Positions 3,179 through 58,085 of a stretch of 64,000 nt of DNA are shown here, piece after piece. Source of the stretch: Thermodesulfobacteriota bacterium (GTDB taxonomy: Bacteria > Desulfobacterota > Desulfobacteria > Desulfobacterales > Desulfosudaceae); contig JBFMDX010000003.1 in NCBI GenBank assembly GCA_040753795.1, positions 62,001-126,000 of the forward strand. Direction: 5' to 3'. Each line of letters starts with the position of its first letter. The stretch's first letter is position 1. A program made the position numbers and the translations under genes. The notes beneath the pieces are model-generated. The model saw only the letters and a list, made by a program, of their open reading frames with translations. It was not told the origin of the DNA and searched no databases.

Positions 3179-3211
3179 AACATTTCCTCTTCTTTCTCCG
3201 CCGGAAAACAA

Positions 3212-3253: not shown

Positions 3254-3275
3254 GCCATCAGGTTCCAGACGCCAT

Positions 3276-3432
3276 GACCGGCCGGTTCGTCTTCTGGCTT
3301 CCCTGACAGCCTTCCGGGCCTTCCCGCGCCGCTTGACACAACGCAGTGACCATCCTTCGGAAGGGTATTTTCCGGGTTACAGCGGCGGGTCCGCCACGGA
3401 TTGGCACCGTGTTCCGTTAACCGGCCGACCGA
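3276..3432 (-). promoter_or_regulatory. Cobalamin (adenosylcobalamin) riboswitch
   Basis: The minus strand carries the hallmark segments in order: closing stem P1 (3426-3419 with 3287-3280), a GGTGCCAATCC-type segment, GCCGCTGTAACCCGG, a GTCACTG segment, and the B12 box GAAGCCAGAAGAC at about 3303-3290. The order and spacing fit the cobalamin riboswitch class. It controls cobT; with the downstream terminator it should switch transcription off when cobalamin binds. Confidence 0.95.
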
Positions 3433-3579
3433 TCAGATTTGTCTTTTTCCTACTAAAGCGACCCGGCCGTGTCAAGATGAAAACAAACGGGCCCGCTTCC
3501 GGTCATGCCTGCCGGCTCACGACCTGCCGATCTGAATAATCTATTGAATCCTGAAGATGATTGGCATATAAAAAAACCC

Positions 3580-42240: not shown

Positions 42241-44310
42241 TCAACCATGATTCGACGCGATAACGTCTCCGCTCTCCAGGAGTTCCTGGCGCCGGCGCCA
42301 GGCCGCGTCATAAAGCTTCCGGTCCCAGCGGGTCAGATCCTCCAGCAGCCCGATGACCCCGGCGGGAAGATCGCCAACAGCAACTTTCTCACTGGTGACA
42401 TTGTCCCTTCGGATATGATCCACCGGACCCATTTTCAACGCCCGCATGATCAGCCGGGCGTCCGCTTCAAAGGTTTCGGTAAAACCGACAAAGGACAATC
42501 GCTCCATATTCATCCGCGCCTTTTCAAACAGCCTTTCCGGCGCCACCCTCCGGTCGGCCAGCTCCCCGAAGCCCGGTCCGGAAGCCAGGCACCAGACCTG
42601 GCTGTCCCGGATATAGCTTCTGACCAGGTCATCGGTTTCGGCTGCCCGCAGAAAGCCCTCCAGATCATGCGCCGCCGCGGCTTTGTAAATGGGGAATTCC
42701 TCGGGGTCCCGGGTCCGGCAGAAATAGTAAAGCGAAACAATCCGTTCCATGGGCTTTCTCAAAAACGTGAACGAGAAGCGGCCGGGCATGAGCTCCCAAG
42801 CGTAATCAAAGCCGAAATGACCGGAAATAAAAGACAGTCTCTTCAAATCCCCCGGCGCCCGGCCCATGTAATCACCGTGATGGCAGACATTTTCATAACC
42901 ATAATGTTCCATGGCCTGCCGCACGATTGATGTCCCCGCCGTCTTACGGATGTGAAGAAACAAGGCCGGCACAAGTTCCCTGCTCCCGTCCGGAGCCGGA
43001 TCGGTCGGTGGCGAATCCTTTGCCGCTTTCATCACCAACCGCCCCATCAGCCGGGCGACACCCGGCGTGACCCAGGCAATGGGGACGATGGACATCACCG
43101 GACGCCGGATGTTCACCCGGGCCTTGAGCCGCTCCAGGACATACCCGGTGAACCGATGGTTCATCAGCGCCGCGACCAGTTTCCGCAGTTCGCGGTCGGG
43201 CCGGTCGGTCCGGAAAGCCGCCCGGGTCAGGGAGTCCAGAAGGAGCGGTTCCTTCTCGCACAACAACGATACCATGGCCTCCAGGGTTTTACGGCGGATA
43301 CCGGGGTAAGGCATCCATGCCTCAGCCTCCTTCGGTGCCGCCTCCCGGAACAGAACCCCGTCTTCCCGGTCGAGCCAGGTTCGGGCGATACGGGCATTGC
43401 CGTCGGCGCACCGCCGCAGGATTTCCATCCGCCGGGAAGGTGACAGCAGCACGTGTTCCTGAAAATCGCTCTGCGTGCCGGCATCCGTTTCCCGGGAATA
43501 CGCAAAAAGAAAAGGCAGGACGGCGTTTCTGGTTTCCCGGTCCATGGGCAGACGGTTGACCAGTTCCTTGAAGGCCAGAGCGTCCCGGCAAAGCCGCGGG
43601 TTCAGGTTGCCCTCCGGCAGCACGACGCCGGCGGGAACCGGCCGGTTGAGCAGGTGGTAAAAAAAATCCGTCAGGATATCCCCGCCGTGAAACTGCTCCC
43701 GTTCAAAGGGCCGCACCACCAGGTTTCCCCGACCGAGGGCATCCGACCACAGGGTGCAGATGGACTCATAGTCAAACTGCTTTGAATCACAGACGAAGCG
43801 GACGGCATTGTCAAGGTCGCTGTAATACTCCGGTCGGCCGTTGCATCCCTTGACCATCTGTTCGGCCAGAGAGGAGATATACTGGTCCTGGCGCCGCAGA
43901 TAAAGGATGGCCCGCACCGGATAATCCCGCAACCGGTCGCGGATATAGACGATCTGGTCCGGCGCCAGGGAGCAGAGCATTTCCGAGCTGATGATGACGG
44001 CGGTGGCAGTGCTGGCGACGATCTCCTCCAGCAGCCGGTCCCAGGCCCGCTCATATTCCGCCCAGGAAACTCCGCTGGTCCAGCCGGGGAAAAAATCCGT
44101 GGCCAGATAATGATGCGCGGTACCGTACGCCCCGGACCGCGGGTAATAGACATCGCCGCGGGGATCCGCGAAGGTGTGCCACAGCACCTCCTGAAGAAAA
44201 GTGGTGGCCGTTTTGTACGTCCCCAGGTGAAGGTAAACGGTCTTATCCGCGCGTGCGCTCATCAGGTTATGATATCCCGCCTTCCGGCCGCCGGGACGGC
44301 CGCCTTCCAT
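42241..44310 (-). CDS. Two-domain sulfotransferase
   Basis: 689 aa. The first domain has a PAPS-binding 5'-phosphosulfate loop HLGTYKTATT at residues 28-37 with a Thr/Ser pattern like other sulfotransferases, plus SSEMLC and ILYLRRQDQYISS (a 3'-phosphate-type L-R-x-x-x-x-Y/R-x-S block near 140). The second domain, from about 445, has FLHIRKTAGTS near 450 and FTFLRKPMERIVS near 517. The ATG at 44310 has AGGAA upstream; an alternative at 44262 fits the first domain better. Both domains should use PAPS, and they could sulfate two positions of the glycan. Confidence 0.82.
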   Translation of the reverse strand: MEGGRPGGRKAGYHNLMSARADKTVYLHLGTYKTATTFLQEVLWHTFADPRGDVYYPRSGAYGTAHHYLATDFFPGWTSGVSWAEYERAWDRLLEEIVASTATAVIISSEMLCSLAPDQIVYIRDRLRDYPVRAILYLRRQDQYISSLAEQMVKGCNGRPEYYSDLDNAVRFVCDSKQFDYESICTLWSDALGRGNLVVRPFEREQFHGGDILTDFFYHLLNRPVPAGVVLPEGNLNPRLCRDALAFKELVNRLPMDRETRNAVLPFLFAYSRETDAGTQSDFQEHVLLSPSRRMEILRRCADGNARIARTWLDREDGVLFREAAPKEAEAWMPYPGIRRKTLEAMVSLLCEKEPLLLDSLTRAAFRTDRPDRELRKLVAALMNHRFTGYVLERLKARVNIRRPVMSIVPIAWVTPGVARLMGRLVMKAAKDSPPTDPAPDGSRELVPALFLHIRKTAGTSIVRQAMEHYGYENVCHHGDYMGRAPGDLKRLSFISGHFGFDYAWELMPGRFSFTFLRKPMERIVSLYYFCRTRDPEEFPIYKAAAAHDLEGFLRAAETDDLVRSYIRDSQVWCLASGPGFGELADRRVAPERLFEKARMNMERLSFVGFTETFEADARLIMRALKMGPVDHIRRDNVTSEKVAVGDLPAGVIGLLEDLTRWDRKLYDAAWRRRQELLESGDVIASNHG

Positions 44311-44322
44311 CGATGATGTTTC

Positions 44323-45030
44323 CTATCTGCCGCGGCTCCGTCGCAGAGATCTGGCATGATCAACCAGCATCTGATCCATTTCGGTAATCCGCCGCAACCG
44401 GCTGCGCGTGGATGACGGCAGATCCTCCGGCCGCGGCCTGGCTCCCCCGGCGTTGATTCTGGGAATCCCTGCGGAAAGGGTAATCTTCAGCCGCTCCAGA
44501 ATAACCGCCATATCCCTGTCCAGGGTCTCCGTAAAACCGATATAGTCAAATTCGGCCAGGTGGTCCCTGGCATCCGTGATCATCTGTTCCGGATCGTAAT
44601 CCACAATGTACCGGCCGTCCCGATTGCCCCAGCCGCAGGCCAGTTGCCAGGTCTGGTGATTCCAGACATAAGACATGACCTGCGGCTGTTCCAGGGCAAG
44701 GTCCAGAAATTCATCCAGTGATTTTTCCCGGGCCAGGCGGTAAACCGGATACTGGCCCGGATCGGATCGACGGCAATGGTAATAAAACGACAGAACCCGC
44801 TCGACAGGATCGCGCAAAAAAGTAAAGCAGTACCGGGAGGGCATGAGCTCCCGGGCAAAGCCGTATCCGAAATGTCCGGAGACAAAATCCGTCCGGTCCA
44901 GGTCGTCGGGACGGCAGCCGTGATAATCGAGGTGGCTGACAACCTTTTCGTAATAACCGCTGACCGTCCGGACAACGGCTGTACCCGCTGTCTTCTGGAT
45001 ATGAAGAAAAAGGGCCGGTACAGGAATCAT
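44323..45030 (-). CDS. Sulfotransferase family protein
   Basis: 235 aa. ALFLHIQKTAGTA (about residues 5-17) is the 5'-phosphosulfate loop. FTFLRDPVERVLSFYYHCR (near 70) is the 3'-phosphate block of PAPS-dependent carbohydrate sulfotransferases of the heparan 2-O/6-O type. It resembles the second domain of the neighbouring two-domain protein, so the pair probably arose by duplication. Start choice: ATG with GGAAG upstream; a TTG at 45057 would add nine residues. The sulfate donor can be made by Sat-CysC in the same locus. Confidence 0.88.
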   Translation of the reverse strand: MIPVPALFLHIQKTAGTAVVRTVSGYYEKVVSHLDYHGCRPDDLDRTDFVSGHFGYGFARELMPSRYCFTFLRDPVERVLSFYYHCRRSDPGQYPVYRLAREKSLDEFLDLALEQPQVMSYVWNHQTWQLACGWGNRDGRYIVDYDPEQMITDARDHLAEFDYIGFTETLDRDMAVILERLKITLSAGIPRINAGGARPRPEDLPSSTRSRLRRITEMDQMLVDHARSLRRSRGR

Positions 45031-45086
45031 GATCGCTTTCTTCCGGTTTGTATCCAACTTGAAACCAACGTTCTTGTGCCCATCGG

Positions 45087-45908
45087 TCAGACCAGCAGCC
45101 GGACCTGCCTGCCCCGGTTCAGATATCGTCCGGAAAGATCAAAGCGTTGCCCGGAATCATTCTCCTGCTCTCCCCGCCGGATAACGGCGTAAGCCGGCAG
45201 CAGGAAAATCGATTCAACCCATTCCGGGCTGGAGGCCAGCGCCATGGTGATCTCGAAAATCAGGTTGGTCAGCGGCGGATCTTCCGGCCAGGGGCCGCCA
45301 TTTTCCTGCCAGTAGGCATCATGCCAGTGGGCCCAGCCCCAGTCCTCGATAATGTAGTACCCGCCGGGGGTGACCCGGGGGAAAAGCAGGTTGAACGACG
45401 CCCGGCTCTCGCGCAGAAAATGCGAGGCATCGTCCACCACCAGATCAATGCTTTCCCGGCCCATTTCCCCGTCAAGGATTTTCCGGATCGCCTCGTCATC
45501 CGCCTGATCCACGCCGTAATAGGTCCGGATAACCTGTCCCAGTTTTTTTTGTCCGATATAGGACTCCAGCGGCGCCACCGGTTCCTTGTTCAGGTCTATG
45601 GCAACGATTTTTTCCGGGGCAAACAGCTTGTGATAAAACATGACGCTGCCGCCCTGGTAAATGCCCAGGTCGAGGACCCTTTTGACGGGCCTGTCAAAGT
45701 TCAGCCCCATCAGGGTTTCCAGTTGCCGGCGGGATTTGCCGATGACGAACCCCTGGGCCGACGACGTCGCCGCGTATAACGGGTCACCCGTCTCGACGAT
45801 AAACGTCACGTCATCGATGGTGAACACATGGTCGCTTTTCCAGCGCAGCTTTCTTTTGCCGGGGATCTTATTCCGCTTTCCGGCAGCAGGCCACAAATTG
45901 AATGGCAT
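45087..45908 (-). CDS. Class I methyltransferase (CmcI/Methyltransf_24-like)
   Basis: 273 aa. RVLDLGIYQGGSVMF near residue 77 (motif I), VAIDLNKEP near 102, DLVVDDASHF near 155 and GGYYIIEDW near 180 identify a class I methyltransferase of the CmcI-like group, often found in surface glycan clusters. The D-D-x-S-H and E-D-W elements could bind a metal, as in cephalosporin-hydroxylase-type methyltransferases. The gene overlaps the end of the WbsX-methyltransferase gene by 41 bp in another frame. Substrate unknown; sugar O-methylation is the likely role. Confidence 0.82.
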   Translation of the reverse strand: MPFNLWPAAGKRNKIPGKRKLRWKSDHVFTIDDVTFIVETGDPLYAATSSAQGFVIGKSRRQLETLMGLNFDRPVKRVLDLGIYQGGSVMFYHKLFAPEKIVAIDLNKEPVAPLESYIGQKKLGQVIRTYYGVDQADDEAIRKILDGEMGRESIDLVVDDASHFLRESRASFNLLFPRVTPGGYYIIEDWGWAHWHDAYWQENGGPWPEDPPLTNLIFEITMALASSPEWVESIFLLPAYAVIRRGEQENDSGQRFDLSGRYLNRGRQVRLLV

Positions 45909-48045
45909 GGGCGTGCTCCTTGGCCGCCAGCAGTTTCCGCAGCCTGGCGGGCACCGTTGTTTTGTTCCACCGCGTTCCGCAGCCCCGGGGCAGGACCGGC
46001 GCCCGCACCGGCACCAGATCGCAGACCGCCAGGCCGGACTCCTCGATCATCTGGCGGAGGGTATCCGCGGTAAAAAACCGCAGGTGCGTCCTGTCCATGA
46101 TGCCGACATCGGCGTAGGAAAAATCGTTATTGTATAAACTCGCCAGGATCTGGGCATGGGCGATGTTCGGCACCGAAACGATGATCCGGCCGCCGGGTTT
46201 GAGCAGCCCCGCGGACGCCTGCAGCACGCGCCAGGGGTCGCGGAGGTGCTCCAGCACGTCGGCGAAAAGAATATAATCGTATGGTTCCCCGGAGAAGGCC
46301 CCCTGCCAGTCATACTGTTCGATATCACCGACGCAGCAGCGGCGGGCATAGGCGGCCGCCTGGCCGGCGCAACGGCTGTCCAGCTCGACGATGTCCACCG
46401 TGGCGCCTCGCTCCTGCTTTAAAAAACGCGTGAAGTATCCGGCCGCGGAACCGAACTCCAGGATCACCCGGCCGTCCTCAATAAACCGGTTGACCACGGC
46501 CAGGGAGTATTCGCCGTTGCTTTCGATGAGATACTTCAGCCACTCATAATCCCGGGTGTAACGGGCGGCCGAATCCGGATCCGGCTCACCTTCCGGAGCG
46601 GCGTCAAAGTCGGCGAAGGGAAGGTTGTAAAGGGCCCGGGCGGTGGTATTCAGGCAAGCGTACCCATAGCGTCGGTCCGGTTCCAGGTAGGCCCCTTCGG
46701 CCCATTCGTTCCAGGCATTGATGAACACCAGCCGCTCCTCCGGCGGAAACGAGGCCCGGGTATAGTCCATGACCCGGCGCAGCCACTGGTAGTATTTCTC
46801 CAGGGAAAAATTCAGGTACATGGTCACGTTGCGGGTGCCGAACCGGGCGGTGTTGTCCCAGCCCAGGGTGCATCCCTCATATATCCGGGTCCCCTGATGG
46901 GACGGCTGGAACATATCCACGCCCGAGGCGTAGTCCAGCCGGTATCCGCCCTCGAACAACCCCTTGTCCTCGGGAATGTGCTGGCAGGGGAAACTGTGCG
47001 GCGGAAAGGCGGCGTAGGCGTCAAACCCGATCTCCTCCAGGCGGACATGGGGGTACACCTCGCCGTGGCAGACTGCCACCAGATGGATCTCCCCGATGCC
47101 GTTGTCCCGGCACCAGGACCGCCAGCGGCTGACGGTTGCCAGGGGATCGGGCAGCTTGCTGACGCGGTAGACCAGCAGCAGGGGCCGGCCGTTGACGCGG
47201 ATGTACCGGGAATCCCGGAAGTAAGGCGCCAGGAACTCGATGAAGCGCAGGTCGTCTTCGGGGGAGAAGGTCTGCTTCATGAGAATGTGATGGTCTTTCC
47301 CGTCCCACTTCTTGCTCCAGGTTTCGTTGGCCCAGCAGAGACAGAACGGCATATCCAGATCGGCGTTGTTCAGCAGCAGGTCCACCGGCTTGCCCAGCAG
47401 CCGTTGGCCGTGAAACCAGTAATGGTAGAAACAGAAACCGTAAATCCCGTGCCGCCTGGCCATGTCCGCCTGACGGCGGAGAACGGCGACGTCGCTCAAA
47501 TCATAATAACCGATGTCGTCATGGGGCTCCCGGGGCTGATAATGACCGGGAAAGGACGGCACCGCCTTGCGGGTATTGCGCCACTCGGTAAAGCCCTCGC
47601 CCCACCAGGCGTCGTTTTCAGGGGTGGCGTGAAACTGCGGCAGATGATAGGCAATGGCCTTGATGTCGGTGGCCTGCCCGGAAAAATCCCGGGGACCTTC
47701 GTAATGGGCCTGGAAGGGCCGCAGGGGCGTCTCCAGATCGCCGTCATCGGTGGGCGTGATCTGGATCATTCCCTTGTCGGCGGCAATCTGCTGCCGGGAC
47801 GGGCCGAAGATCACCGCCGGCGGCTGGGTAATCCGGGGGAAACGCCGGCTGAACCACAGATAGATCCCGACCGCCAGTCCATATAACCGGGGGAAAGGAA
47901 GCAGACAGCGCTTGATGAGGTTAATCACCTTCTGCTGCAACGGCGGACGCTGTATCAGAGGTGCCCCGGCCGCGGGCGCCTGCCCGTTCATCTCTTTGGC
48001 CGGCGTTTCGGTATCGCTTCCTTTATGATCCGCCCTGTTTAACAT
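45868..48045 (-). CDS. WbsX/GH99-like protein fused to a methyltransferase
   Basis: 725 aa. Residues 1-125 are a linker with one hydrophobic helix near 50-65. Residues 127-480 are a WbsX/GH99-like domain (YHLPQFHATPENDAWWGEGFTEW near 133, FCFYHYWFHGQ near 203, CWANETWSKKWD near 236, INAWNEWAEG near 446). Residues 510-725 are a class I methyltransferase (VILEFGSAAGYFTRFL near 531, FADVLEHLRDPW near 591, PGGRIIVSVPN near 612). The architecture implies paired trimming or transfer and methylation on one chain. It is 6 bp downstream of the wzt-like gene. Confidence 0.86.
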   Translation of the reverse strand: MLNRADHKGSDTETPAKEMNGQAPAAGAPLIQRPPLQQKVINLIKRCLLPFPRLYGLAVGIYLWFSRRFPRITQPPAVIFGPSRQQIAADKGMIQITPTDDGDLETPLRPFQAHYEGPRDFSGQATDIKAIAYHLPQFHATPENDAWWGEGFTEWRNTRKAVPSFPGHYQPREPHDDIGYYDLSDVAVLRRQADMARRHGIYGFCFYHYWFHGQRLLGKPVDLLLNNADLDMPFCLCWANETWSKKWDGKDHHILMKQTFSPEDDLRFIEFLAPYFRDSRYIRVNGRPLLLVYRVSKLPDPLATVSRWRSWCRDNGIGEIHLVAVCHGEVYPHVRLEEIGFDAYAAFPPHSFPCQHIPEDKGLFEGGYRLDYASGVDMFQPSHQGTRIYEGCTLGWDNTARFGTRNVTMYLNFSLEKYYQWLRRVMDYTRASFPPEERLVFINAWNEWAEGAYLEPDRRYGYACLNTTARALYNLPFADFDAAPEGEPDPDSAARYTRDYEWLKYLIESNGEYSLAVVNRFIEDGRVILEFGSAAGYFTRFLKQERGATVDIVELDSRCAGQAAAYARRCCVGDIEQYDWQGAFSGEPYDYILFADVLEHLRDPWRVLQASAGLLKPGGRIIVSVPNIAHAQILASLYNNDFSYADVGIMDRTHLRFFTADTLRQMIEESGLAVCDLVPVRAPVLPRGCGTRWNKTTVPARLRKLLAAKEHAHAIQFVACCRKAE

Positions 48046-48051
48046 GACCCC

Positions 48052-48909
48052 TTACCCTGTTGATCGTCCATCCGTATCCCGCGGGGCCGCTGATGCCGTC
48101 GATGCCGCCGCCGCAGCCTCCTTTTTCCGGGAGGTCGGCCCTTTCCAGTCCGGACGCTTCCCGGGCCATGTGATCGTCTCCAGATAAGCGTCCAGCACCT
48201 CCGGCCCCGGTCCCTCCAGCCGGCTTTTTCCGTCCTCGATCCAGACGATACGGTCGCAGAGTTCCCGCAGTATCGGTATGCTGTGAGAAACCAGCACCAC
48301 GGTCTTGTCGGATTTGATCCGCTGTTTCATGGCGTCCGTGGATTTGTTCCGGAACGCCTCATCCCCTACTCCCATCACCTCGTCGAGCAGAATCACGTCG
48401 GGGTTCAAATGGTAGGCCACGGAAAACCCCAGCCGCGCCCGCATGCCGGTGGAGTAGGTATTGACCGGTTCATCGGAAAAATCTTTCAGCTCGGCAAAAG
48501 CCATGATGTCGTCCAGGCGCGCGACCACTTCCCGCTTGGTGGCGCCCAGAATCATCCCGTTTAAAATGGCGTTCTCCCGGCCGCTTAAAAACGGCACAAA
48601 ACCGGCTCCCAGGGAAAGCAGGGAGATACGCAGCCCCGGCTGGTAAACCGTCACTTTCCCGGTATCCGGGACGATGATGCCGGCCAGGACCTTCAGGAGC
48701 GTGCTTTTGCCCACCCCGTTCCGGCCGATGATGCCCAGGGTCTCGCCGGCGTAAAGATCAAAGGAAACATCCTGAAGCGCCCAGAACCGCGACCGTTTCC
48801 GAAAACCCTGGCGCCGGGTATAAAACAGACCGACATTCGTCACGCTTAACACCCGGTTATCGGCGCCGGTCTTCATAAGCTGGGGTGTATTGTCCGTTCC
48901 TGTTTCCAT
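48052..48909 (-). CDS. wzt: Polysaccharide ABC exporter ATPase (Wzt/KpsT/TagH type)
   Basis: 285 aa. Walker A IIGRNGVGKST near residue 74, a TYSTGMRARLGFSVA signature near 150, Walker B VILLDEVMGVGDEAF near 170 and LVSHS near 205. The TGMRARL signature and GVGDEAF after Walker B are typical of O-antigen and capsule exporter ATPases. The C-terminal ~40 residues are Ala/Thr/Lys-rich, short, and lack the long carbohydrate-binding domain of Wzt proteins that recognise a capped glycan end. The permease gene is 2 bp upstream. Confidence 0.93.
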   Translation of the reverse strand: METGTDNTPQLMKTGADNRVLSVTNVGLFYTRRQGFRKRSRFWALQDVSFDLYAGETLGIIGRNGVGKSTLLKVLAGIIVPDTGKVTVYQPGLRISLLSLGAGFVPFLSGRENAILNGMILGATKREVVARLDDIMAFAELKDFSDEPVNTYSTGMRARLGFSVAYHLNPDVILLDEVMGVGDEAFRNKSTDAMKQRIKSDKTVVLVSHSIPILRELCDRIVWIEDGKSRLEGPGPEVLDAYLETITWPGKRPDWKGPTSRKKEAAAAASTASAAPRDTDGRSTG

Positions 48910-48911
48910 GA

Positions 48912-49709
48912 CTACACGACAATTTTGGGGTAAACCCGGTCAAAACGGCGGAGAATCCAGACCGCCAGAATCAGAACGCCCGCGGAAAACAGCACCACCC
49001 CCGTCAGGGGCAGCCAGTCCGGCGGCGTTCCGTACAGAAGCACCTTCCGGTACATGGCAATCATTACGGCCATGGGGTTGAGCATCATATACCCCTTCAT
49101 GCCGGCGGGCAGATTGCCGATATCATAAAAAACCCCGGAAAGAAAGAGCAGCATCATCAGCACATTGTCGAAAATGCCTTTCAAGTCCGGGAAAAACGGT
49201 ATGACGGCCGCCAGCAGGCAGGTGATCGCGGCGATCAGCAGCAATTGAATCCCCATTAAAACCGGCAGCAGGAGCCAGGCCCGGCTCACAACGGCGGACG
49301 TGAACTGCAGGAACACCAGCAGGATCACCAGGATGAAAACAAATTTGAAGGTGTTGACGGCGACAGTGGTCAGGGGAAAGACGATCTTGGGGACATAGAT
49401 CTGGTTCATCAGGCCGGCATTGGCCACCAGGCTGTTGGAGCCGATGCTGAGGGTGGCATGGAACCATTTCCACATGATCAGGCCGGTGAGCAGAAAGGTC
49501 ACATAATTTTCATCCCCCCGTCCCAGCACGTGGGCAAAGGCAATGTAAAAAACGGTCATGTACAGGACCGGTTCAATGACCCACCACATCACGCCGAGAT
49601 ATCCCCGGGTGGCTTCGGCGCGCAACCCGGCCCGGGCTTCCTGGATGATCAGGTCAGTCAGGTAGTGCCAGTCCCTGTGATTCGAATTAAGCGTATACCC
49701 GGATTTCAT
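48912..49709 (-). CDS. wzm: Polysaccharide ABC exporter permease (Wzm/KpsM type)
   Basis: 265 aa, six membrane segments of the ABC-2 type. The N-terminal TDLIIQEARAGLRAEATRGYLGVMWWVIEPVLYMTVF stretch and the later NPMAVMIAMYRKVLLYG are characteristic of Wzm/TagG permeases. It moves a finished undecaprenyl-linked polysaccharide across the inner membrane with the ATPase encoded next to it. It is the first gene of the minus-strand polysaccharide locus; a sigma70-like promoter lies about 45 bp upstream. Confidence 0.93.
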   Translation of the reverse strand: MKSGYTLNSNHRDWHYLTDLIIQEARAGLRAEATRGYLGVMWWVIEPVLYMTVFYIAFAHVLGRGDENYVTFLLTGLIMWKWFHATLSIGSNSLVANAGLMNQIYVPKIVFPLTTVAVNTFKFVFILVILLVFLQFTSAVVSRAWLLLPVLMGIQLLLIAAITCLLAAVIPFFPDLKGIFDNVLMMLLFLSGVFYDIGNLPAGMKGYMMLNPMAVMIAMYRKVLLYGTPPDWLPLTGVVLFSAGVLILAVWILRRFDRVYPKIVV

Positions 49710-50075: not shown

Positions 50076-50144
50076 TGTCGTGATAAAGGCGACGCCTATA
50101 ACGCGACATTTCCGACAACGACATCTAACCACAGGAGGACGAGA

Positions 50145-51155
50145 ATGTCACCGCATCTTCGAACGAAACGCTTTGCCATCGCCTTGTTAGCCCTCATTGC
50201 CTGCTGCGCTTTCTTCCCCGGCGCTTCACCGGCCGCGGAGGTGAAGGATATTACCATTATTTATACCGGTTCGGTCAGAGGCAACTTTGAACCGTGTCAC
50301 TCCTGAGGCTCCAAATATTCGGGCGGTCTGGCCCGAAGAGCCAACGCGATCGAATCCTATCGAAAAGAAGGAAAACCCCTGCTGCTGGTGGACTGCGGCG
50401 AGCTGTTCGACCCTAACCAGGATACGGCCCTGTTCCTGCTCAAAACCATGGATCAGATGAAGTATGACGCCATGAGCCTCGGCGCGCCCGATCTCCAGTT
50501 CGGGTATGAGTTCATTGAAAAGTCGCGGTCGGAAGTTTCCTTCCCCTACGTTGCCTCCAATCTCATTTACAATGACGCGCCGCCCTCCTCCTCTTTCGGG
50601 TATGTCATCAAGGAGACCGGCGGCATCAAAGTGGCCATCTTCGGCGTGATAGATCCGGAGGAACTGGTCAAGTTCATTTCCCCTAAAGAAGCGGAAAAGC
50701 TGCGGGCAGTGCCGCCCGAGACCGCCCTGGCGCCGCTGGTTTCCGAGGCGAAGACAAAGGCCGATCTGGTTGTCCTCCTGTCCCAGCTTCCCAACACCAA
50801 ACTCGTTTCGCTGATGAACGCGGTCAAGGGAATCGATCTGGCCATTACCGCCGGATGCTATGAGCAGACCAAGGAAAAGCCGCCGGCGGAAAGCCAGATC
50901 ATCAATATCAGAGGGAACAAGGGCATAACCCTGGGAATCCTGAAAATCGCCCTGGATGCCAGGGGAGGTTTCAAGATCAAGGAAGACCAGCATGTCGAAC
51001 TGAACGATGACTTTACCGATGACCCGGAAATTGCCAGGCAGATGGAAGCGCACAAAAAAGCGTTGGAAATAAAGGAAGAAAAACAGAAAAAGGAACTCGA
51101 AGCGGGTCTGCAAATGACCCCGGAGGAGTTCATGAAACAACACCAGAAACAGTAA
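50145..51155 (+). CDS. UshA-like selenoprotein (Sec at residue 54)
   Basis: 336 aa if the in-frame TGA at 50304-50306 is read as selenocysteine. ATG has a perfect AGGAGG six bases upstream. Residues 1-31 are a signal peptide. The mature chain resembles a 5'-nucleotidase/UshA-type metallophosphatase N-terminal domain: IIYTGSVRGNFEPC, the redox-like C51-x-x-U54, GGLARRA, LVDCGELFD, and DLVVLLSQLP. The metal ligands of true UshA (D-x-H, G-N-H) are not conserved, so it is probably not a normal phosphatase. The reading frame continues without a break on both sides of TGA. A SECIS hairpin follows. A Glu/Lys-rich helical tail ends the protein. Confidence 0.88.
50304..50342 (+). promoter_or_regulatory. 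UGA selenocysteine codon and bacterial SECIS element
   Basis: TGA at 50304-50306 is followed at once by stem GGCTC (50307-50311)/GAGCC (50338-50342), a 6-nt bulge on the 5' side (50312-50317), and a perfect 7-bp stem TTCGGGC (50318-50324)/GCCCGAA (50331-50337). The loop GGTCTG (50325-50330) has the GGTCT seen in the E. coli fdhF SECIS loop, and the 18 nt between UGA and GGTCT equal the distance I recall for fdhF. Confidence 0.9.
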
Positions 51156-51181: not shown

Positions 51182-51628
51182 GTGAAGAACACACATAAGA
51201 CCCTGACCGCGGCCGCGGTCTGCCTGATGATGCTGGCCCTGGCCGCCGGATGCGCCGCCTTATCCCAGATGAGCGCCAAACACCAGCCGCTGGAAGAACG
51301 GGTGAAGGGATACATGCAGGCCCAGATAGAAGGAAGGTGGGAGGACGCCTATGGTTATCTGGACGCCGCCACCCGCGGGAATACATCCCGGGACAGCTAC
51401 ATTCACAAGACCAGAAAAGCGAACTATACCGGCTATGAAATAGCCGAGGTTAACATTCTGCCTTCCGGAGATCAGGCCAAGGTGAAGGTCAAACTGGATA
51501 TCTCCTTCATGGGTTATGACATGAAGGGAGCGCCCCTTATGCAGAACTGGGTGAAAGAAAAGGGTGCCTGGTACGTCGTTCCCCAGCCGAAAGAAGGCGC
51601 CTTTGCTCCGGGAGAAAAAGAAAAATAG
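51182..51628 (+). CDS. Small lipoprotein of unknown function
   Basis: 148 aa. GTG start with AAGGAG seven bases upstream. The lipoprotein signal ends LALAAGC, putting the lipid on Cys at about residue 24. The mature part (EERVKGYMQAQIEGRWEDAYGYL, a DSYIHKTR segment, VKVKLDISFMG) looks like a small cystatin/NTF2-type alpha-beta domain, as in DUF4878-like lipoproteins. It lies 26 bp after the selenoprotein gene on the same strand and is probably cotranscribed. No partner function is known. Confidence 0.7.
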   Translation: MKNTHKTLTAAAVCLMMLALAAGCAALSQMSAKHQPLEERVKGYMQAQIEGRWEDAYGYLDAATRGNTSRDSYIHKTRKANYTGYEIAEVNILPSGDQAKVKVKLDISFMGYDMKGAPLMQNWVKEKGAWYVVPQPKEGAFAPGEKEK

Positions 51629-51785: not shown

Positions 51786-54272
51786 TTACATATTCGATCC
51801 GCTCAGGATATTTTTGTTTTTGTGGTTGCCGTAAAGATAAAATCCGCCGATGGCCCCGGAGGCATTCTCCGTCCGGAAGACCATAAACGACAGGGTTGAA
51901 GCGGCCTGCCCGAAACGGGCCTTCACGTCAAAGACCTCATAAGCCCCGGCATTGAGATTCAGCGTCTGCACCCTATCGGCCATCAGATTCCCGTTCAGAT
52001 CGTAGGGTTCCATGCGCACCATCTGGGCCACGGTCAAGGGATTGCAGATCACGACTCCCGTCCACCAGTAGCTGTTGCCCGCGTAATGGGGAAGATGAAG
52101 AACATTTTTAAAGGCGTTTTCATCCAGCAGCGGATAACTGGCATTGTCGGTTCTGCCGGGGACGTTGTAGGTATAATATCCGGCCAGCGGATAGAGGCCG
52201 GTAATCTCCAGAGCCGAATGATACAAGGGATCTCCCGCGGGTTTGGCGAAAAGATCCTGGACCTCCACGACTCTTTTTTCCCGGGGCGCCAGCACGATGT
52301 TGTAGTCCCCGGAGCGGTCCGCGCCGGCCAGGGCCAGATGGAACCGGACGGAATTCTCCGAATTATTGGGATTGATGAGGGTCACCCGGGTAATCCACGA
52401 ACCGGGAGCGGCGACGTGAGGCACGATCTTCTTTTCGGCTCCCCGCATGGGCAGGGCGAACAGGGTTTCCACGCCGGAGGTGTTGGACAGATACTGGAAC
52501 CCGCTCAAGACGCTGTCCGTGTTTCCCTGCACATCGATCCAGCCCGAAGCCGGCATGTCATAAAAGGGGTAAGAGCCGGGTTTGATGGAAAGATACCCGC
52601 GGCCGGCGATGGTCTCGGTGACTTCCTTCTGAAGAATGCCGGTGGCGGAATACAGCCGGAGCCGCACCTGGGCGTCTTCAAACCCCTCGTTTCTGACGCC
52701 GGAAAACAACCTGACTTTCGGGGTCATGGGAGCGGCCGTATCAGGCAGGATCAGCCGGCTTGCCCGGGACTCCTGCTGGACAAAAGTGGCCAGAAAGGAA
52801 TTTGCCGATCCGATCAGGTTGAGCAGTTCAACCGGGCCGTCGGCTGCCAGGGTCAAGCGCTCGGTTTCAATCAGTTCATGCATGGGTATGGGGAAATCAC
52901 TGAAGAAAAAACGCCTTTTCTCGCCGGGTTCAAGACGCAGCGGGCCCAGAAGCGTCTGGATCGGTGCCCCTTCCCCGTCCCCGCTGGTCAGGGTCACGCC
53001 GTCTACCGCCGTCTCCCCCGCATTGGTCAGGGTAAAACCGGACCAGTCACCGGACTTGGGGATATAGGGGACCTCCTGGCTGAAGGCCCTGCTCAGGTCC
53101 AGGGCCAGGGTATAGATGTTCGGATCGGCCGTGTAATCGTCCTGGGTCAGGCGAATGGTATAGGGGGCGGTGACGGCCGTAATAGTATCATCCAGCGGCA
53201 CGCCGCTGGTGATGATTTTTCGCACCAGTTCATTGCCGTTGCCGTCAGTTACAACCGCCTCCATGTCCTTCCAGCTCCCGGCCTGTTTTTCGATCCGCAG
53301 AGAAAAGGTATCACCGGGCCGGGCGTTAACGGTATAGGTGTCCTCATTCAGCAGAACCAGCTGGTAGGTGCCGGGAGCGATTTCCGCCGCTGCATTGCCC
53401 TGATTCTCAAGCGGGTCATCCATGGATCTGGCCAGCCGCACGATCTCCTGATAATTCAGACCCGGGAAACCGGAGCCGATGGCCATGGGATAATTGAGCA
53501 GTTCCGGATGATCGGCAACGCTGTTGCCCGTCCACTGGCCGCCGGTGATGGCCCCGGCGCCATTTAAAAACAGATCATAGGTATAAGCCGTGGATCTCAC
53601 CTGGGTTCCCATGAAGTCCGGCGAGACAAAATCATCGGCGTAATACACCGTCGTCTCCACCGACTGGGTGCTGCCGCTGATACTGCTGCGCATCTCATAA
53701 CGGTATACAGGATAGGACCACACCTCGGTGCCGGCCGCCAGATCGGCCACAAAGGCCTTCTGCAGATCGCCGATATAGTGCAGCAGCCAGTAGTGAAACA
53801 CCTCGGGCCGGGAACCGTCGTCCGTCTCGACCAGATCGCCGTTGTGGATCAGGGTCAGCAGGCCTTTCTTGTCTCCCACCCGGAAGATGATATTCTGTTC
53901 GGAGGAGGGGAAAATATTGATATGTTCATAACAGGCCGCCCGGGCCCAGTAAGCGCAGAGCCCGTACCAGGCAGGCGCGTTGGGATCATAAAAGGCGTTC
54001 AGGTACTGGGTCAGGGCTTCGCCGCTGGTCACCCCGGTGGTCAGGAGATTGTATTTTTCAAGGGGCGCCGGCCGGCCCCGGTAATCGATGCCGGTACCGA
54101 GCCCGCCATACATGAAAGGCCACCAGTAACCGGACCAGGGCACGGATGTGGATTGAGCGGCCCCGGCGGAAACCGCGGAAAACAGGAGAATGGCTATCAT
54201 CAATACCGGCGTCAGCGCAGCCCTGGCCGGGGATATTACACGTGAACCATCGCGGGACATATTCTTCATCAT
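51786..54272 (-). CDS. Large secreted protein, transglutaminase-elicitor-like N terminus
   Basis: 828 aa. Signal peptide to about residue 39. Residues 46-145 (GYWWPF, PLEKYNLL, WYGLCAYWARA with Cys106, RVGDKKGLLTLIH) recall the transglutaminase-elicitor family, in which a W-x-G-x-C-x-x-W motif holds the catalytic Cys. Residues about 290-400 have a bacterial pre-peptidase-like beta domain. Residues about 500-828 contain at least two modules with W-x-x-x-V-x-x-x-N-P patterns, the last like the C terminus of the Cys-rich protein encoded at 55079. Export is clear; transglutaminase activity is only suggested. A small secreted-protein gene lies 9 bp upstream. Confidence 0.6.
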   Translation of the reverse strand: MMKNMSRDGSRVISPARAALTPVLMIAILLFSAVSAGAAQSTSVPWSGYWWPFMYGGLGTGIDYRGRPAPLEKYNLLTTGVTSGEALTQYLNAFYDPNAPAWYGLCAYWARAACYEHINIFPSSEQNIIFRVGDKKGLLTLIHNGDLVETDDGSRPEVFHYWLLHYIGDLQKAFVADLAAGTEVWSYPVYRYEMRSSISGSTQSVETTVYYADDFVSPDFMGTQVRSTAYTYDLFLNGAGAITGGQWTGNSVADHPELLNYPMAIGSGFPGLNYQEIVRLARSMDDPLENQGNAAAEIAPGTYQLVLLNEDTYTVNARPGDTFSLRIEKQAGSWKDMEAVVTDGNGNELVRKIITSGVPLDDTITAVTAPYTIRLTQDDYTADPNIYTLALDLSRAFSQEVPYIPKSGDWSGFTLTNAGETAVDGVTLTSGDGEGAPIQTLLGPLRLEPGEKRRFFFSDFPIPMHELIETERLTLAADGPVELLNLIGSANSFLATFVQQESRASRLILPDTAAPMTPKVRLFSGVRNEGFEDAQVRLRLYSATGILQKEVTETIAGRGYLSIKPGSYPFYDMPASGWIDVQGNTDSVLSGFQYLSNTSGVETLFALPMRGAEKKIVPHVAAPGSWITRVTLINPNNSENSVRFHLALAGADRSGDYNIVLAPREKRVVEVQDLFAKPAGDPLYHSALEITGLYPLAGYYTYNVPGRTDNASYPLLDENAFKNVLHLPHYAGNSYWWTGVVICNPLTVAQMVRMEPYDLNGNLMADRVQTLNLNAGAYEVFDVKARFGQAASTLSFMVFRTENASGAIGGFYLYGNHKNKNILSGSNM

Positions 54273-54281
54273 CTAACCACC

Positions 54282-54950
54282 CTAATTCAGAAGCCAGGAA
54301 CGCCGTTGCGGCGTTTCTTCATAAATCCACCAGGAACCATTTGCCGGCCAGAGCTGCCGGACGGCCAGGCGGCCCCTGTCATCGTTAACCCTTACCATTA
54401 CCAAATCCCCGGCAACATTCGGTGAGCCCGCTCTGATCCAGCCGTTGGTTCTGGCTTCATCAATACTGACGGTTTCAGAGGAAATCGTATAGGTACGGGT
54501 AAAAGCACTGTCTCCCGCCCGGATGATTTCCTGATACATCCGGCCGTCGTCTCTGGCATCGATCGGGATGATGTCGCAGGGAGCGGGAAATCCGGGGCAA
54601 AGCAGCAGGCCGGTGTCACTGGTCTTTTCGGCGTTCTGCGGACCCCGCCAGCGGATGAGGCCATCGGCGCCGGATGGCGGCAGAATGACTTCACAGACCG
54701 CTTGCGCTCCGGCCACGGCTTCCATGAAAAAACCAAGCGACATAGAGCCGTCCGCGGCCGATTCCGGCATCACTTTCCAGACCTGGGTCTGGGGGGGAGA
54801 AGCATCATTCATGGCCGTGTACTCGGAAGCGATACTCGCGGCGGTTCCAGTCCGGTAAAAATCCGCCGGACATTCAATCGCAATCATCGTCAGGATGACG
54901 GACAGCAAAAAGACAAATCCTGACCGCGGGAGGCTGTTGTGGTTTATCAT
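54282..54950 (-). CDS. Secreted hypothetical protein
   Basis: 222 aa from the ATG at 54950, which has AAGGTGA six bases upstream. N-terminal signal peptide (FVFLLSVILTMIAIECPA). The mature part has three cysteines and a beta-rich, W/R-containing middle (LIRWRGPQN) with a C-terminal WPANGSWWIYEE segment. I recognise no family. Same strand as, and 9 bp upstream of, the large secreted protein gene, so the two are probably coexpressed and may work together. A strong terminator just upstream isolates them from the Cys-rich protein gene. Confidence 0.6.
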   Translation of the reverse strand: MINHNSLPRSGFVFLLSVILTMIAIECPADFYRTGTAASIASEYTAMNDASPPQTQVWKVMPESAADGSMSLGFFMEAVAGAQAVCEVILPPSGADGLIRWRGPQNAEKTSDTGLLLCPGFPAPCDIIPIDARDDGRMYQEIIRAGDSAFTRTYTISSETVSIDEARTNGWIRAGSPNVAGDLVMVRVNDDRGRLAVRQLWPANGSWWIYEETPQRRSWLLN

Positions 54951-54978
54951 GTCATCACCTTCATTCACATCCCCATGA

Positions 54979-55012
54979 AAAAAGTGGGGGGTCTGTTTCC
55001 AAACCCCCCACC
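54979..55012 (-). terminator. Strong intrinsic terminator of the Cys-rich protein gene
   Basis: GTGGGGGG (minus strand 55012-55005 side) pairs with CCCCCCAC (54992-54985 side), 8 GC-rich bp extended by GTTT/AAAC in the loop, followed on the minus strand by six U (54984-54979). It lies 67 bp after the stop at 55079. Confidence 0.88.
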
Positions 55013-55078
55013 ATTTTTACTTAAAGACCCATCATGCGTTCCTGCTCACGCCGGAGCACACGATCGAGCGTTTACAAC

Positions 55079-56173
55079 TTAGTCAACGACGTAACCCATG
55101 GCTTCGTCGCCATTGCCCATCATGGCAAAGCCTTCGGCAGCGCCGTAATTGCAGGCCGCGGTGATGTAGCTGCGACCGTCAACATCGGCAGAACCGGTCC
55201 AGGTGATGCTGTCGACAGAGTCAACAAACATTCCGCCGGCCGGAACGGAAACCGTGGCGGTGGCGGTATTGCCGGCCACATCATGCAGGGTCAGGACGGC
55301 GGTACCGGCGGTGGTGCCCGGGTTCACGATGGCCATGCCTCTCCAGAAGGAGGTGTTGGCGGCAAAGTAGGGGAAAGTCAGGTTGGTCGTCGGAGCCGCA
55401 GCAGCGCAGCAGACCGTGGCGACATCGATGATGCATTCGCAGATGGTGCAGCCGCCGCAGATGGTGACGCCGGTGTTGTCCAGCAGGTTGACCTTGACCT
55501 GAACCTTGGCGCCGGAAGCGACCAGGGCCGGATCGATTCTCATGGGCGGAATATCAATCCACCACCATTCGCCGGACAGCGGCGGAATGACAAAACCAAT
55601 CACCGGAGCGGTCGATTCCAGAACGGTGGCCCGGGAAGCAGCAGCAACGGTGCAGGTGGGGTCAGACGGCAGAGCAGCCGGAGCAACCGGGGTGATCTCG
55701 TCGGACAGATAGTAGGTGTGAGCGCCGAAGGTGCCGAAGGTAACGCCGGTGCCATGGGCCAGCAGCGCGCAGGCGGCAGCCTGGGTAGCAGCGGTATCGA
55801 CCTGGATGGCAGCCGGAGCGGAACCCAGGGTGTTGGAGAAATAAGCGCCTCTGTCACCAGCCACGCCGTTGACCAGGATGGTCATTTTGATACCCACATC
55901 CAGGCCGGCCACGAAAGCGGTCGGATCCGGCAGGCAGTCGCAGACATGCAGGATGGCTTTGCAGTTGTTGGCCGGGTTCCAGGAGCAGTATCCGTCCAGA
56001 GCGGTGTTCAGGTCATAGTCAAATTCGTTGCAGACCGCGGCAGTCTGACCGCCGGCGGGGCAGGGAACGTTTCTCAGCGGGCATTTGCAGGTAGAGCACG
56101 CATCGGCAAAAGCGCCGGTGGTGAAAACCAGAGCGGTCGCCAGCACTGCGAGTAACACAAGAATCTTCTTCAT
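55079..56173 (-). CDS. Cys-rich secreted surface protein, probably highly expressed
   Basis: 364 aa from the ATG with GAGGAG eight bases upstream. Signal peptide to AFA at about residue 23. The mature chain has 18 cysteines, nine in the first 65 residues (CSTCKCPL, CDCLPD) and four in ICGGCTICEC near 240. The C-terminal ~100 residues form a beta domain with FWRGMAIVNPG, close in pattern to a module of the protein at 51786. A near-perfect ribosome site, uniform GC-ending codons, an AT-rich 5' region and a strong terminator suggest high expression. No family recognised; a structural surface role is inferred. Confidence 0.7.
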   Translation of the reverse strand: MKKILVLLAVLATALVFTTGAFADACSTCKCPLRNVPCPAGGQTAAVCNEFDYDLNTALDGYCSWNPANNCKAILHVCDCLPDPTAFVAGLDVGIKMTILVNGVAGDRGAYFSNTLGSAPAAIQVDTAATQAAACALLAHGTGVTFGTFGAHTYYLSDEITPVAPAALPSDPTCTVAAASRATVLESTAPVIGFVIPPLSGEWWWIDIPPMRIDPALVASGAKVQVKVNLLDNTGVTICGGCTICECIIDVATVCCAAAAPTTNLTFPYFAANTSFWRGMAIVNPGTTAGTAVLTLHDVAGNTATATVSVPAGGMFVDSVDSITWTGSADVDGRSYITAACNYGAAEGFAMMGNGDEAMGYVVD

Positions 56174-56411
56174 TTTTTTTCTCCTCATTGTAATTTTTTT
56201 TAACTGATGATAATCGTCAACGGTACCGACAAAACATTAACTACTTATACAATTTTCCGCTTATCCTCCTCCTTTCCCTTTACGTTTTTTTTGTTAGAAT
56301 AAACTTTTTTTACGTCTATAACCAAAGATCCCCTCCTTGTCAAGCTTTTCATTTTTCAGCTTTTTTACAAGTTCGGGATCAGGTCCCCGCTGATCGTTGT
56401 TTTTGAGTCGT

Positions 56412-57623
56412 TTATTGCTCGTCTGCTTCTGTTTCGCTTCTTGATCCCAGGTTCAGCACCATGAGAAGAATTCGATCACCGCAGATCCCCTTCAATGCGG
56501 CTGATTCTCCATATGCAATACCTATGCCTATTTCTTTTACCGAACCGTTCAACAAGTTTCTTTCATTTTTATTGGACGGATTCAGTTCATAGGAAAACAT
56601 GTTTTTAAAGACCTGCCCCATCAAATCCCGGATCCGGCCATAATCATTATTGTCCAGGTATTTCAGCCACTCGTCATCATCGCCCAGGCAGGCCCGCCAG
56701 AGCTGTTCTCTGGATTCGGCCGCCTCGTATCCGGCTTCGCGGATACGATCCTCAAAAGTCCGGCCATCCTGTGATTTATGGGAAAAGTACCCGTTTTCCA
56801 TCATGTCTTCGGCATGAGACTCGGCCGCTTCCTGCAGATCCAGATTGACGGTCAGCGGGGGAAGGCCTTGATTTAACATATCTTTCCAATCCGGAAAGTC
56901 CTTCAGCACCTGAACCGGATCCAAGCCCAGGGCTTCGGCCGTGCCCAGCGGATTGACCCGGGCCTGATTGACCAGCCGCAGGAATTCGGACTGGGCGCAG
57001 GGCATGACCGCCCCGAAATCACAGGTGGCCACGTAAACATTTCTCCGGCCGCCGCCGACCCGCAACTTGCCGGTCTGGACGCTGATGCCCGCTTCCATAA
57101 GACAAGGGTCCAGAATATTACGCTTTTCCTTCCGATCCGGATTCAACTCATCCAGAAACATATACTCGAATATCAGCCGGACGGCTTCATCTGGATTGAT
57201 AAAATTGGCAAAAACGATCATTCCCAGGGATTCACCCGATACGACAGCCGGATAACCGGCTTCCCGGATCCGTTCTTCATACCCCTGCCCGTCAGGAGAT
57301 GTGCTGGAATAGTAGTTCCGGGAGAGCATGTCCCAGTCATGGGCGCAGGCGGTTTCCGCCAGGGCCTGGTTAAAGGTCAGTGGAGAAAGCCCATTTATCA
57401 GAACCGTTTCCAGTTCCGGGAAATCCGCCAGAACCTTGTCCGGATCCAGGCCCAGGGAGGCGGCCGTTTCCAGCGGATTCAGACGGGCCTGGTTGATCAG
57501 GGCCAGCAGAGCCTCATCCTGGGGAGTGGGCAGATCGGATTCGGCCAGAAGGCTGCCGACGGCGCATACCGCCAGAAGAGCGGTTAACATCAGAACCAGA
57601 TATATTTTCTTTATCGTTGCCAT
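56412..57623 (-). CDS. Secreted protein with two tandem CAP/SCP domains
   Basis: 403 aa from the ATG at 57623 (57650 adds nine residues; neither has a clear ribosome site). Signal peptide with a long hydrophobic stretch, cleavage near residue 27. Two homologous halves follow: LINQARLNPLETAASLGLD near 40 and LVNQARVNPLGTAEALGLD near 218, each followed by a CAP core with an H-D-W or H-A-E-D-M metal-site helix. The second half keeps ESHAEDMMENGYFSH, the first has AHDWDML. YkwD-like CAP proteins bind lipids or have unknown extracellular roles. The internal duplication is clear. Confidence 0.85.
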   Translation of the reverse strand: MATIKKIYLVLMLTALLAVCAVGSLLAESDLPTPQDEALLALINQARLNPLETAASLGLDPDKVLADFPELETVLINGLSPLTFNQALAETACAHDWDMLSRNYYSSTSPDGQGYEERIREAGYPAVVSGESLGMIVFANFINPDEAVRLIFEYMFLDELNPDRKEKRNILDPCLMEAGISVQTGKLRVGGGRRNVYVATCDFGAVMPCAQSEFLRLVNQARVNPLGTAEALGLDPVQVLKDFPDWKDMLNQGLPPLTVNLDLQEAAESHAEDMMENGYFSHKSQDGRTFEDRIREAGYEAAESREQLWRACLGDDDEWLKYLDNNDYGRIRDLMGQVFKNMFSYELNPSNKNERNLLNGSVKEIGIGIAYGESAALKGICGDRILLMVLNLGSRSETEADEQ

Positions 57624-58085
57624 AGCGTAACAACTAAAAGCAAAATCCATGCAAAGAGAAGGAATATCGCAAATCTTTTTCAGAAATTTATGGCCACCAT
57701 GACGGATGTTTTATTTCAATAACTTGTTTTTATTAAACATATATTTTTTTTGTCCATACAGACAAACCGGATATGCATAATACTTTCAGATTAATGAAAA
57801 AGGCTTTTTTATCTGGATCACCCGGTCAAGCCGAGTGATAACGAGCATTTAAGCCTAATAACGATAAACCTTTATCCCGAACAATCAGATGAGGACGAAA
57901 ATTAATTCAAGCAAGCCTGGCGATGAAGGATTCGCCTCCATCCAATATTGGCTAAATTTAACCAATCATGGCTATTTTCAGCCATCCACCTAAAACCATA
58001 ACACCCTAAAGCCACTTAATCACTTAAAACTTAAAACTTAATCACTTAAAACTTAACCACTTAAAACTTAATCACTTCCCCCCAA
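57624..58085. other. Gene-free interval with several hairpins and a repeat array
   Basis: AT-rich DNA between the CAP gene and the TonB receptor gene. It holds a REP-like hairpin at 57817-57839 (ATCACCCGG/CCGAGTGAT), small hairpins near 57920 and 57950-57985, and the degenerate array at 58009-58080. No coding frame was convincing. Confidence 0.65.
58009..58080. repeat. Degenerate CACTTAA/AACTTAA array after the TonB receptor gene
   Basis: About nine units of CCACTTAAT, CACTTAAAA and CTTAAAA type, ending a few bases from the stop codon of the minus-strand TonB receptor gene. Read from that gene, it is the same TTAAGTG orientation seen after glpC. Confidence 0.88.

What the first reader, a model, noticed from the sequence alone, without database searches (positions are those of the whole stretch)
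50145..51155. UshA-like selenoprotein with a textbook SECIS element
The in-frame TGA at 50304 splits one continuous reading frame, with signal peptide and AGGAGG before it and family-like sequence after it. Right behind TGA lies a two-stage stem (5 bp, bulge, 7 perfect bp) with a GGTCTG loop, 18 nt from the UGA. The resulting C51-x-x-U54 is a redox-type motif in a protein that keeps the fold pattern of a 5'-nucleotidase but has lost its metal ligands. I recall that UshA-like (seleno)protein families exist in public naming, so the family may not be new, but its chemistry is open. A gene caller would report a truncated pair.
Basis: partly seen in the sequence, partly recalled or inferred. Interest (0 to 1): 0.85.

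Follow-up and report, generated by a model that had tools for sequence, protein, structure and literature searches.

The report
Exported selenoprotein on degenerate nucleotidase fold
A bacterium of or near the order Desulfobacterales reads a 'stop' codon as the rare amino acid selenocysteine to make an exported protein built on a worn-out 5'-nucleotidase fold; the kind is known, but this branch is overlooked, recurs in a fixed gene neighbourhood, and its job is open.

Summary
Window 50145-51155 is one reading frame broken only by an in-frame TGA at 50304. A 7-bp stem with GGUCUG loop lies 18 nt behind it. The genome carries selA, selB, selC and selD.

In 40 aligned proteins the residue at this place is selenocysteine (30) or cysteine (10), never anything else. 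Sec and Cys change places at least seven times on the tree, and the SECIS stem shows compensatory base changes. Independent genomes with the same TGA, including complete Desulfonema magnum, exclude a read error.

One correction: only Sec54 is invariant. Cys51 is present in about a third of homologs, so C51-x-x-U54 is not the defining motif.

The kind is known: NCBI models UshA-like (seleno)protein NF041198 (CxU, often fused to cytochrome c554) and family 2 NF049981 (CxxU). This protein is related to both but scores well under both cut-offs. It belongs to a short branch without haems or nucleoside-binding domain, and has lost all metal ligands.

New here: that branch sits in a conserved locus, with an NTF2-like lipoprotein directly behind (once fused) and a secreted transglutaminase-like protein with invariant Cys/His. 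Most likely function: exported selenol redox protein (inferred).

The parts
50133..50138 (+). Shine-Dalgarno AGGAGG before the ATG
   Evidence: sequence read directly
50145..51155 (+). UshA-like selenoprotein gene, 336 aa with Sec54; signal peptide about residues 1-31 (ASPAA|E), mature mass about 33.8 kDa
   Evidence: translation with TGA=U; AlphaFold2 pLDDT 93.2; mass; cleavage site inferred from sequence
50304..50306 (+). TGA codon read as selenocysteine 54
   Evidence: Sec or Cys in all 40 aligned proteins; at least 7 Sec/Cys changes on the tree
50307..50342 (+). bacterial SECIS: lower stem 50307-50311/50338-50342, upper stem 50318-50324/50331-50337, loop 50325-50330 GGTCTG
   Evidence: folds; covariation
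51024..51152 (+). C-terminal helical tail (helices 294-322 and 326-335) with LxPxEF-type motif, in the place of the interdomain linker helix of 5'-nucleotidases
51182..51628 (+). NTF2-like lipoprotein, 26 nt behind; conserved partner
   Evidence: cluster present in 23 of 39 loci; related domain fused in L022/L058
51786..54272 (-). exported transglutaminase-like protein (PF16683, 64.6 bits), invariant Cys106 and His160; conserved neighbour
55079..56188 (-). exported cysteine-containing protein; homolog next to the same cluster in L057 and related proteins at 15 loci
56412..57650 (-). CAP-domain exported protein (PF00188, 80.8 bits), recurring neighbour

Best explanation
It is a genuine selenoprotein gene. 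SelB and tRNA-Sec decode the UGA at 50304 with the help of the SECIS hairpin in the coding region right behind it (shown as far as sequence can show it; I put this part at 0.97). The product is exported by a signal peptide (inferred from sequence). It is the N-terminal calcineurin-type domain of the 5'-nucleotidase/SoxB fold (shown by sequence profile and model), but it has lost all six metal ligands and the C-terminal nucleoside-binding domain (shown by alignment), so it is very unlikely to be a nucleotidase. What selection keeps is Sec/Cys54, the GG..R motif behind it and a few scaffold residues. Most likely (inferred) the fold holds one reactive selenol that exchanges electrons with thiols or sulfur species in the periplasm or at the surface, using an external thiol, or Cys51 where present, to resolve it. 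It probably works with the lipoprotein encoded directly behind it, and may serve the transglutaminase-like cysteine enzyme and the cysteine-bearing exported proteins of the same locus.
For: Sec decoding: sel genes; Sec/Cys only at position 54; seven Sec/Cys changes forced by supported branches; covariation of the SECIS, 15 double-change cells and score 0.252 with 0 of 500 shuffles reaching it, sharp peak at slide 0; Sec members fold better than synonymous recodings and Cys members hardly do (mean z -1.36 vs -0.28, p = 0.0016); all four criteria of the published bSECIS model met. Fold and loss of the enzyme: VIA Z 31-32 to 5'-nucleotidases, 29.5 to SoxB; S/R/E/A/Q/G in place of D/H/D/N/H/H; no 5_nucleotid_C domain, while an ordinary UshA of the same genome has it. 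Redox: broader relatives are fused to four-haem cytochrome c554; some Cys-type relatives lie with thioredoxin and DsbD-type genes. Partners: lipoprotein in 23 of 39 loci, fused once; transglutaminase-like protein in 21 loci, invariant Cys and His; co-occurrence across 389 genomes p = 5.5e-14.
Against: No experiment. The redox role rests on residue type and gene company. Much of the branch has a lone Sec with no nearby Cys, which is unusual for thiol oxidoreductases, and no thioredoxin gene was seen next to the window gene. The transglutaminase-like neighbour in the window is on the opposite strand, so it is not in the same transcript there. The co-occurrence p-value ignores shared descent.
Confidence: 0.6

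Rival explanations
1. Sec54 (or Cys54) is a metal ligand or catalytic nucleophile of a remodelled hydrolase, taking the place of the lost His38 of the 5'-nucleotidase site, rather than a redox residue.
For: In the CGU/CGC branch four of six ligands are usually kept (D.D.HH) and His38 and Asn117 are replaced; Sec54 follows closely on the loop that carries the first two ligands; SoxB, a hydrolase of sulfur groups, has the same fold.
Against: The window's branch keeps 0 to 2 ligands in most members yet keeps Sec/Cys54 without exception, so Sec54 is conserved independently of a metal site.
Confidence: 0.13
2. Sec/Cys54 is mainly structural: it corresponds to a loop cysteine of the CD73-type nucleotidases, which I recall as part of a disulfide.
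For: In the profile alignment position 54 lies opposite a cysteine of snake venom 5'-nucleotidase in the loop before GGVARR.
Against: No second invariant cysteine exists in the family to pair with it; selenocysteine is costly and retained or regained repeatedly, which is unusual for a structural bridge.
Confidence: 0.1
3. The TGA is a real stop, a pseudogene lesion or a sequencing error.
For: Stop-limited gene calling ends the ORF there.
Against: Aligned TGA in 29 relatives from other loci, including the complete chromosome of Desulfonema magnum; full Sec machinery; conserved SECIS.
Confidence: 0.01
4. UGA is reassigned or read through as another amino acid such as Trp.
For: The frame is open under such a code (trivially).
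Against: The replacing residue in homologs is always Cys, never Trp; several relatives of the gene end in TGA as a stop; tRNA-Sec with TCA anticodon is present.
Confidence: 0.01

Closest known systems
UshA-like (seleno)protein, NCBIfam NF041198 (UshA_like_PCGU; COG0737 CxU family of PMC2398784 and PMC13188914)
   Same: Best family match (160.8 bits over residues 16-327); signal peptide, same domain, Sec in the PC..U loop before GGLARR
   Different: Below the 275-bit cut-off; CxxU instead of CxU; lacks the four-haem cytochrome part; ends in a helical tail with LxPxEF; metal ligands all lost
UshA-like (seleno)protein family 2, NCBIfam NF049981 (CxxU)
   Same: CxxU followed by G.K..GGLARR, as in the one member over the cut-off found here (L148, CPSUGGKTVGGLARR)
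   Different: 66.9 bits against a cut-off of 140, matched over residues 36-117 only; 262-position family without the tail
Ecto-5'-nucleotidase CD73 / UshA / venom 5'-nucleotidase
   Same: N-terminal calcineurin-type fold (VIA Z about 31, rmsd 2.4 over about 276 residues)
   Different: All six metal ligands replaced; C-terminal nucleoside-binding domain absent; Sec54 present
SoxB thiosulfohydrolase
   Same: Same fold (Z 29.5); SoxB is periplasmic and works on sulfur carried by a partner protein
   Different: Metal ligands and C-terminal domain missing; 34.4 bits against 550
fdhF SECIS of Escherichia coli (as I recall it)
   Same: GGUCUG loop motif 18 nt behind UGA
   Different: Different stem sequence; the loop here also encodes the conserved Gly-Leu of GGLA

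Membership tests
Bacterial selenoprotein gene | selA, selB, selC, selD in the genome | tested here: met
   all over curated cut-offs
Bacterial selenoprotein gene | bSECIS: apical loop 3-9 nt, upper stem 4-16 bp, G in the first two loop positions, 16-37 nt spacing, MFE at most -7.5 (model in PMC13188914) | tested here: met
   6-nt loop GGUCUG, 7 bp, 18 nt, -20.5 kcal/mol
Bacterial selenoprotein gene | Cys homologs at the Sec position | tested here: met
   10 Cys, 30 Sec of 40
Bacterial selenoprotein gene | selenium in the protein | not testable with these tools
   needs 75Se labelling or mass spectrometry
UshA-like (seleno)protein NF041198 | score at or over 275 bits | tested here: not met
   160.8 bits
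UshA-like (seleno)protein NF041198 | CxU motif | tested here: not met
   CHSU, that is CxxU
UshA-like (seleno)protein family 2 NF049981 | score at or over 140 bits | tested here: not met
   66.9 bits
UshA-like (seleno)protein family 2 NF049981 | CxxU motif | tested here: met
   C51-H-S-U54; family motif from PMC13188914
5'-nucleotidase / UshA | N-terminal calcineurin-type fold | tested here: met
5'-nucleotidase / UshA | six metal ligands (D36 H38 D85 N117 H220 H243 in CD73 numbering, from established knowledge) | tested here: not met
   S43 R45 E86 A114 Q214 G237
5'-nucleotidase / UshA | C-terminal domain PF02872 | tested here: not met
   no match; the genome's own UshA has it
SoxB | score at or over TIGR04486 cut-off of 550 | tested here: not met
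   34.4 bits

The most novel reading that the evidence does not exclude
The short branch is a functional system of its own: a haem-free, metal-free pseudo-nucleotidase that carries a single exported selenocysteine, works as a pair with an NTF2-like lipoprotein, and supports a secreted transglutaminase-like cysteine enzyme and cysteine-bearing proteins at the cell surface of Desulfobacterales.
Probability: 0.3. Interest if true: 0.72.

Novelty: new variant of a known kind. Interest (0 to 1): 0.52.

Why it matters
UshA-like selenoproteins are listed in reviews with no chemistry assigned, and were named in 2008 among the few major families without a conserved Cys-based redox motif (PMC2398784). 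This branch shows that the phosphoesterase apparatus can vanish completely while Sec/Cys54 stays, which puts the chemistry on that residue. It also gives concrete partners to test: a lipoprotein whose domain is once fused to it, and a secreted cysteine enzyme. And it shows that the current models miss a common branch, so its genes are likely to be called as truncated pairs.

Tried and rejected
Named relatives of the window protein in genome contigs with the single protein: none; alignment A1 was too divergent for that search; a sub-branch alignment worked. CxxU as the defining motif: rejected, Cys in that column in 13 of 39. Metal-ligand role as the general explanation: rejected for this branch because the ligands are gone while Sec54 stays. 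Reassignment of UGA, pseudogene and read error: rejected (see rivals). Promoter and terminator scans around the gene gave no usable site on the gene's strand upstream of it. Literature search for a link between transglutaminase elicitor proteins and selenoproteins: no paper.

Full report
Observation. Window 50145-51155 is a single frame of 336 codons broken only by TGA at 50304. It begins with a signal peptide behind AGGAGG. Plain ORF calling gives a truncated pair. The RNA behind the TGA folds into a 7-bp stem with GGUCUG loop on top of a 5-bp stem, -20.5 kcal/mol, z -3.30. The loop starts 18 nt behind the TGA. This meets every criterion of the bacterial SECIS model quoted in PMC13188914.

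Machinery. The genome (4.75 Mb, 41 contigs, 99.8% complete) has selA, tRNA-Sec with anticodon TCA, selB and selD, whose own gene has an in-frame TGA.

Homologs. Searches of 58 relatives, 395 genomes of the phylum and 389 of the order found a very widespread family: 225 of 395 phylum genomes match the profile at 1e-15 (ordinary UshA proteins are part of that count), and most of the strong matches contain one TGA. I collected 39 loci with relatives (window included), mainly from the order and of the short type. In all 40 aligned proteins position 54 is Sec (30) or Cys (10). The other invariant residues are G60, G61, R64, G85 and N139. Cys51 is not conserved: 13 of 39 have Cys in that column, others V, I, T, S, L, K, W and so on. 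Many relatives have a lone Sec. Supported branches of the tree require seven Sec/Cys changes. Named holders include Desulfonema magnum 4be13 (complete chromosome), Desulfococcaceae bacterium HSG8 and Desulfatirhabdium MAGs.

SECIS across relatives. In 17 Sec genes with the same spacing the upper stem is paired in 94% of cells, with changes on both sides at three of its seven pairs. Covariation score and double-change cells are reached by none of 500 shuffles, and the score falls off at every slide. These 17 were picked by hand for spacing; L056 and L145, with other spacing or loop, were left out. The lower stem is not conserved (48%). Against synonymous recoding, Sec genes fold better than Cys genes do (mean z -1.36 against -0.28, p 0.0016). 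The loop codons also encode the conserved Gly-Leu, so loop conservation alone would not be independent evidence; the stem covariation is.

Fold. AlphaFold2 on 39 sequences: pLDDT 93.2, pTM 0.87. The model matches 5'-nucleotidases (VIA Z about 31-32, rmsd 2.4 over about 276 residues) and SoxB (29.5). The six metal ligands of the nucleotidases are S43, R45, E86, A114, Q214 and G237 here: none kept. In the branch with CGU/CGC motifs four of six are usually kept; in the window's branch mostly 0 to 2. Ligand positions were mapped by hand from the profile alignment to venom 5'-nucleotidase. The C-terminal nucleoside-binding domain is absent. The protein is therefore very unlikely to be a nucleotidase.

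Known families. NCBIfam NF041198 matches with 160.8 bits (cut-off 275) and NF049981 with 66.9 (cut-off 140). Reviews list them as UshA-like CxU and UshA-like family 2 CxxU. Of the ten relatives tested, the one that passes NF041198 (L063, 450 bits) carries a four-haem cytochrome c554 part behind the domain, as do many others in the phylum. In 198 phylum genomes only one protein passed NF049981, a CPSU protein without the tail. The window protein thus belongs to the same superfamily but to neither curated family: it is of a short, haem-free type with an LxPxEF helical tail. In the structural alignments the tail lies where 5'-nucleotidases have the residues between their two domains (read from ranges; inference).

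Neighbourhood. An NTF2-like lipoprotein follows the gene by 26 nt in the window. Homologs occur at 23 of 39 loci, in 16 of them within about 30 nt on the same strand, and in D. magnum the two genes overlap by an ATGA. In L022/L058 the Cys-type protein is fused to a domain that matches this lipoprotein (E 5e-5 in a two-sequence comparison, 18% identity). A large exported protein with PWSGYWWP and PF16683 matches occurs at 21 loci; Cys106, His160 and Asp219 (window numbering) are invariant in 19 of 19. Genomes with the short protein (26, counted by me: at least 185 bits, plus G603) and genomes with PF16683 (21) share 14 of 389, Fisher p 5.5e-14; shared descent inflates this. Exported cysteine-bearing proteins (15 loci), CAP proteins (11) and polysaccharide exporter genes (13) recur as well. 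A few Cys-type relatives (L052, L129, L139) lie instead with thioredoxin- and DsbD-type genes, ArsR-type regulators or ArsP-type permease homologs, and a DGC-domain protein at L052, which points to thiol redox.

Reading. Shown: frame, SECIS, machinery, Sec/Cys exchange, fold, ligand loss, gene company. Inferred: export, selenol redox chemistry, partnership with the lipoprotein and with the cysteine enzyme. The chemistry cannot depend on an internal CxxU pair in general, because many members have a lone Sec.

Verdict. The kind is known; the branch and its locus were not found in the papers that I could search. New variant of a known kind.

Noticed in passing
window 51786-57650 (-) and L057 5805-12738: Conserved cluster of exported proteins (transglutaminase-like PF16683, cysteine-bearing protein, CAP protein) around the selenoprotein gene in several families of the order.
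   Followed up: partly
window 3267-3440 (-): Cobalamin riboswitch (RF00174, 76.9 bits) directly before a cobT-like gene (2114-3211, -): ordinary.
   Followed up: partly
L048 1501-2427 (genome C2:321613-322539): selD of this genome itself has an in-frame TGA, so SelD is probably a selenoprotein too.
   Followed up: no
L052, L129, L139: A Cys-Cys form of the protein lies with thioredoxin- and DsbD-type genes, ArsR-type regulators or ArsP-type permease homologs (plus a DGC-domain protein at L052): a second, thiol-redox type of context.
   Followed up: partly
L142 (G603) 6030 onward: Two Cys-type copies of the domain lie in tandem (L142, L142b).
   Followed up: no
window 42241-49709: Polysaccharide export ABC genes and transferase-like genes lie upstream; such exporter genes recur near the family at 13 loci.
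   Followed up: partly
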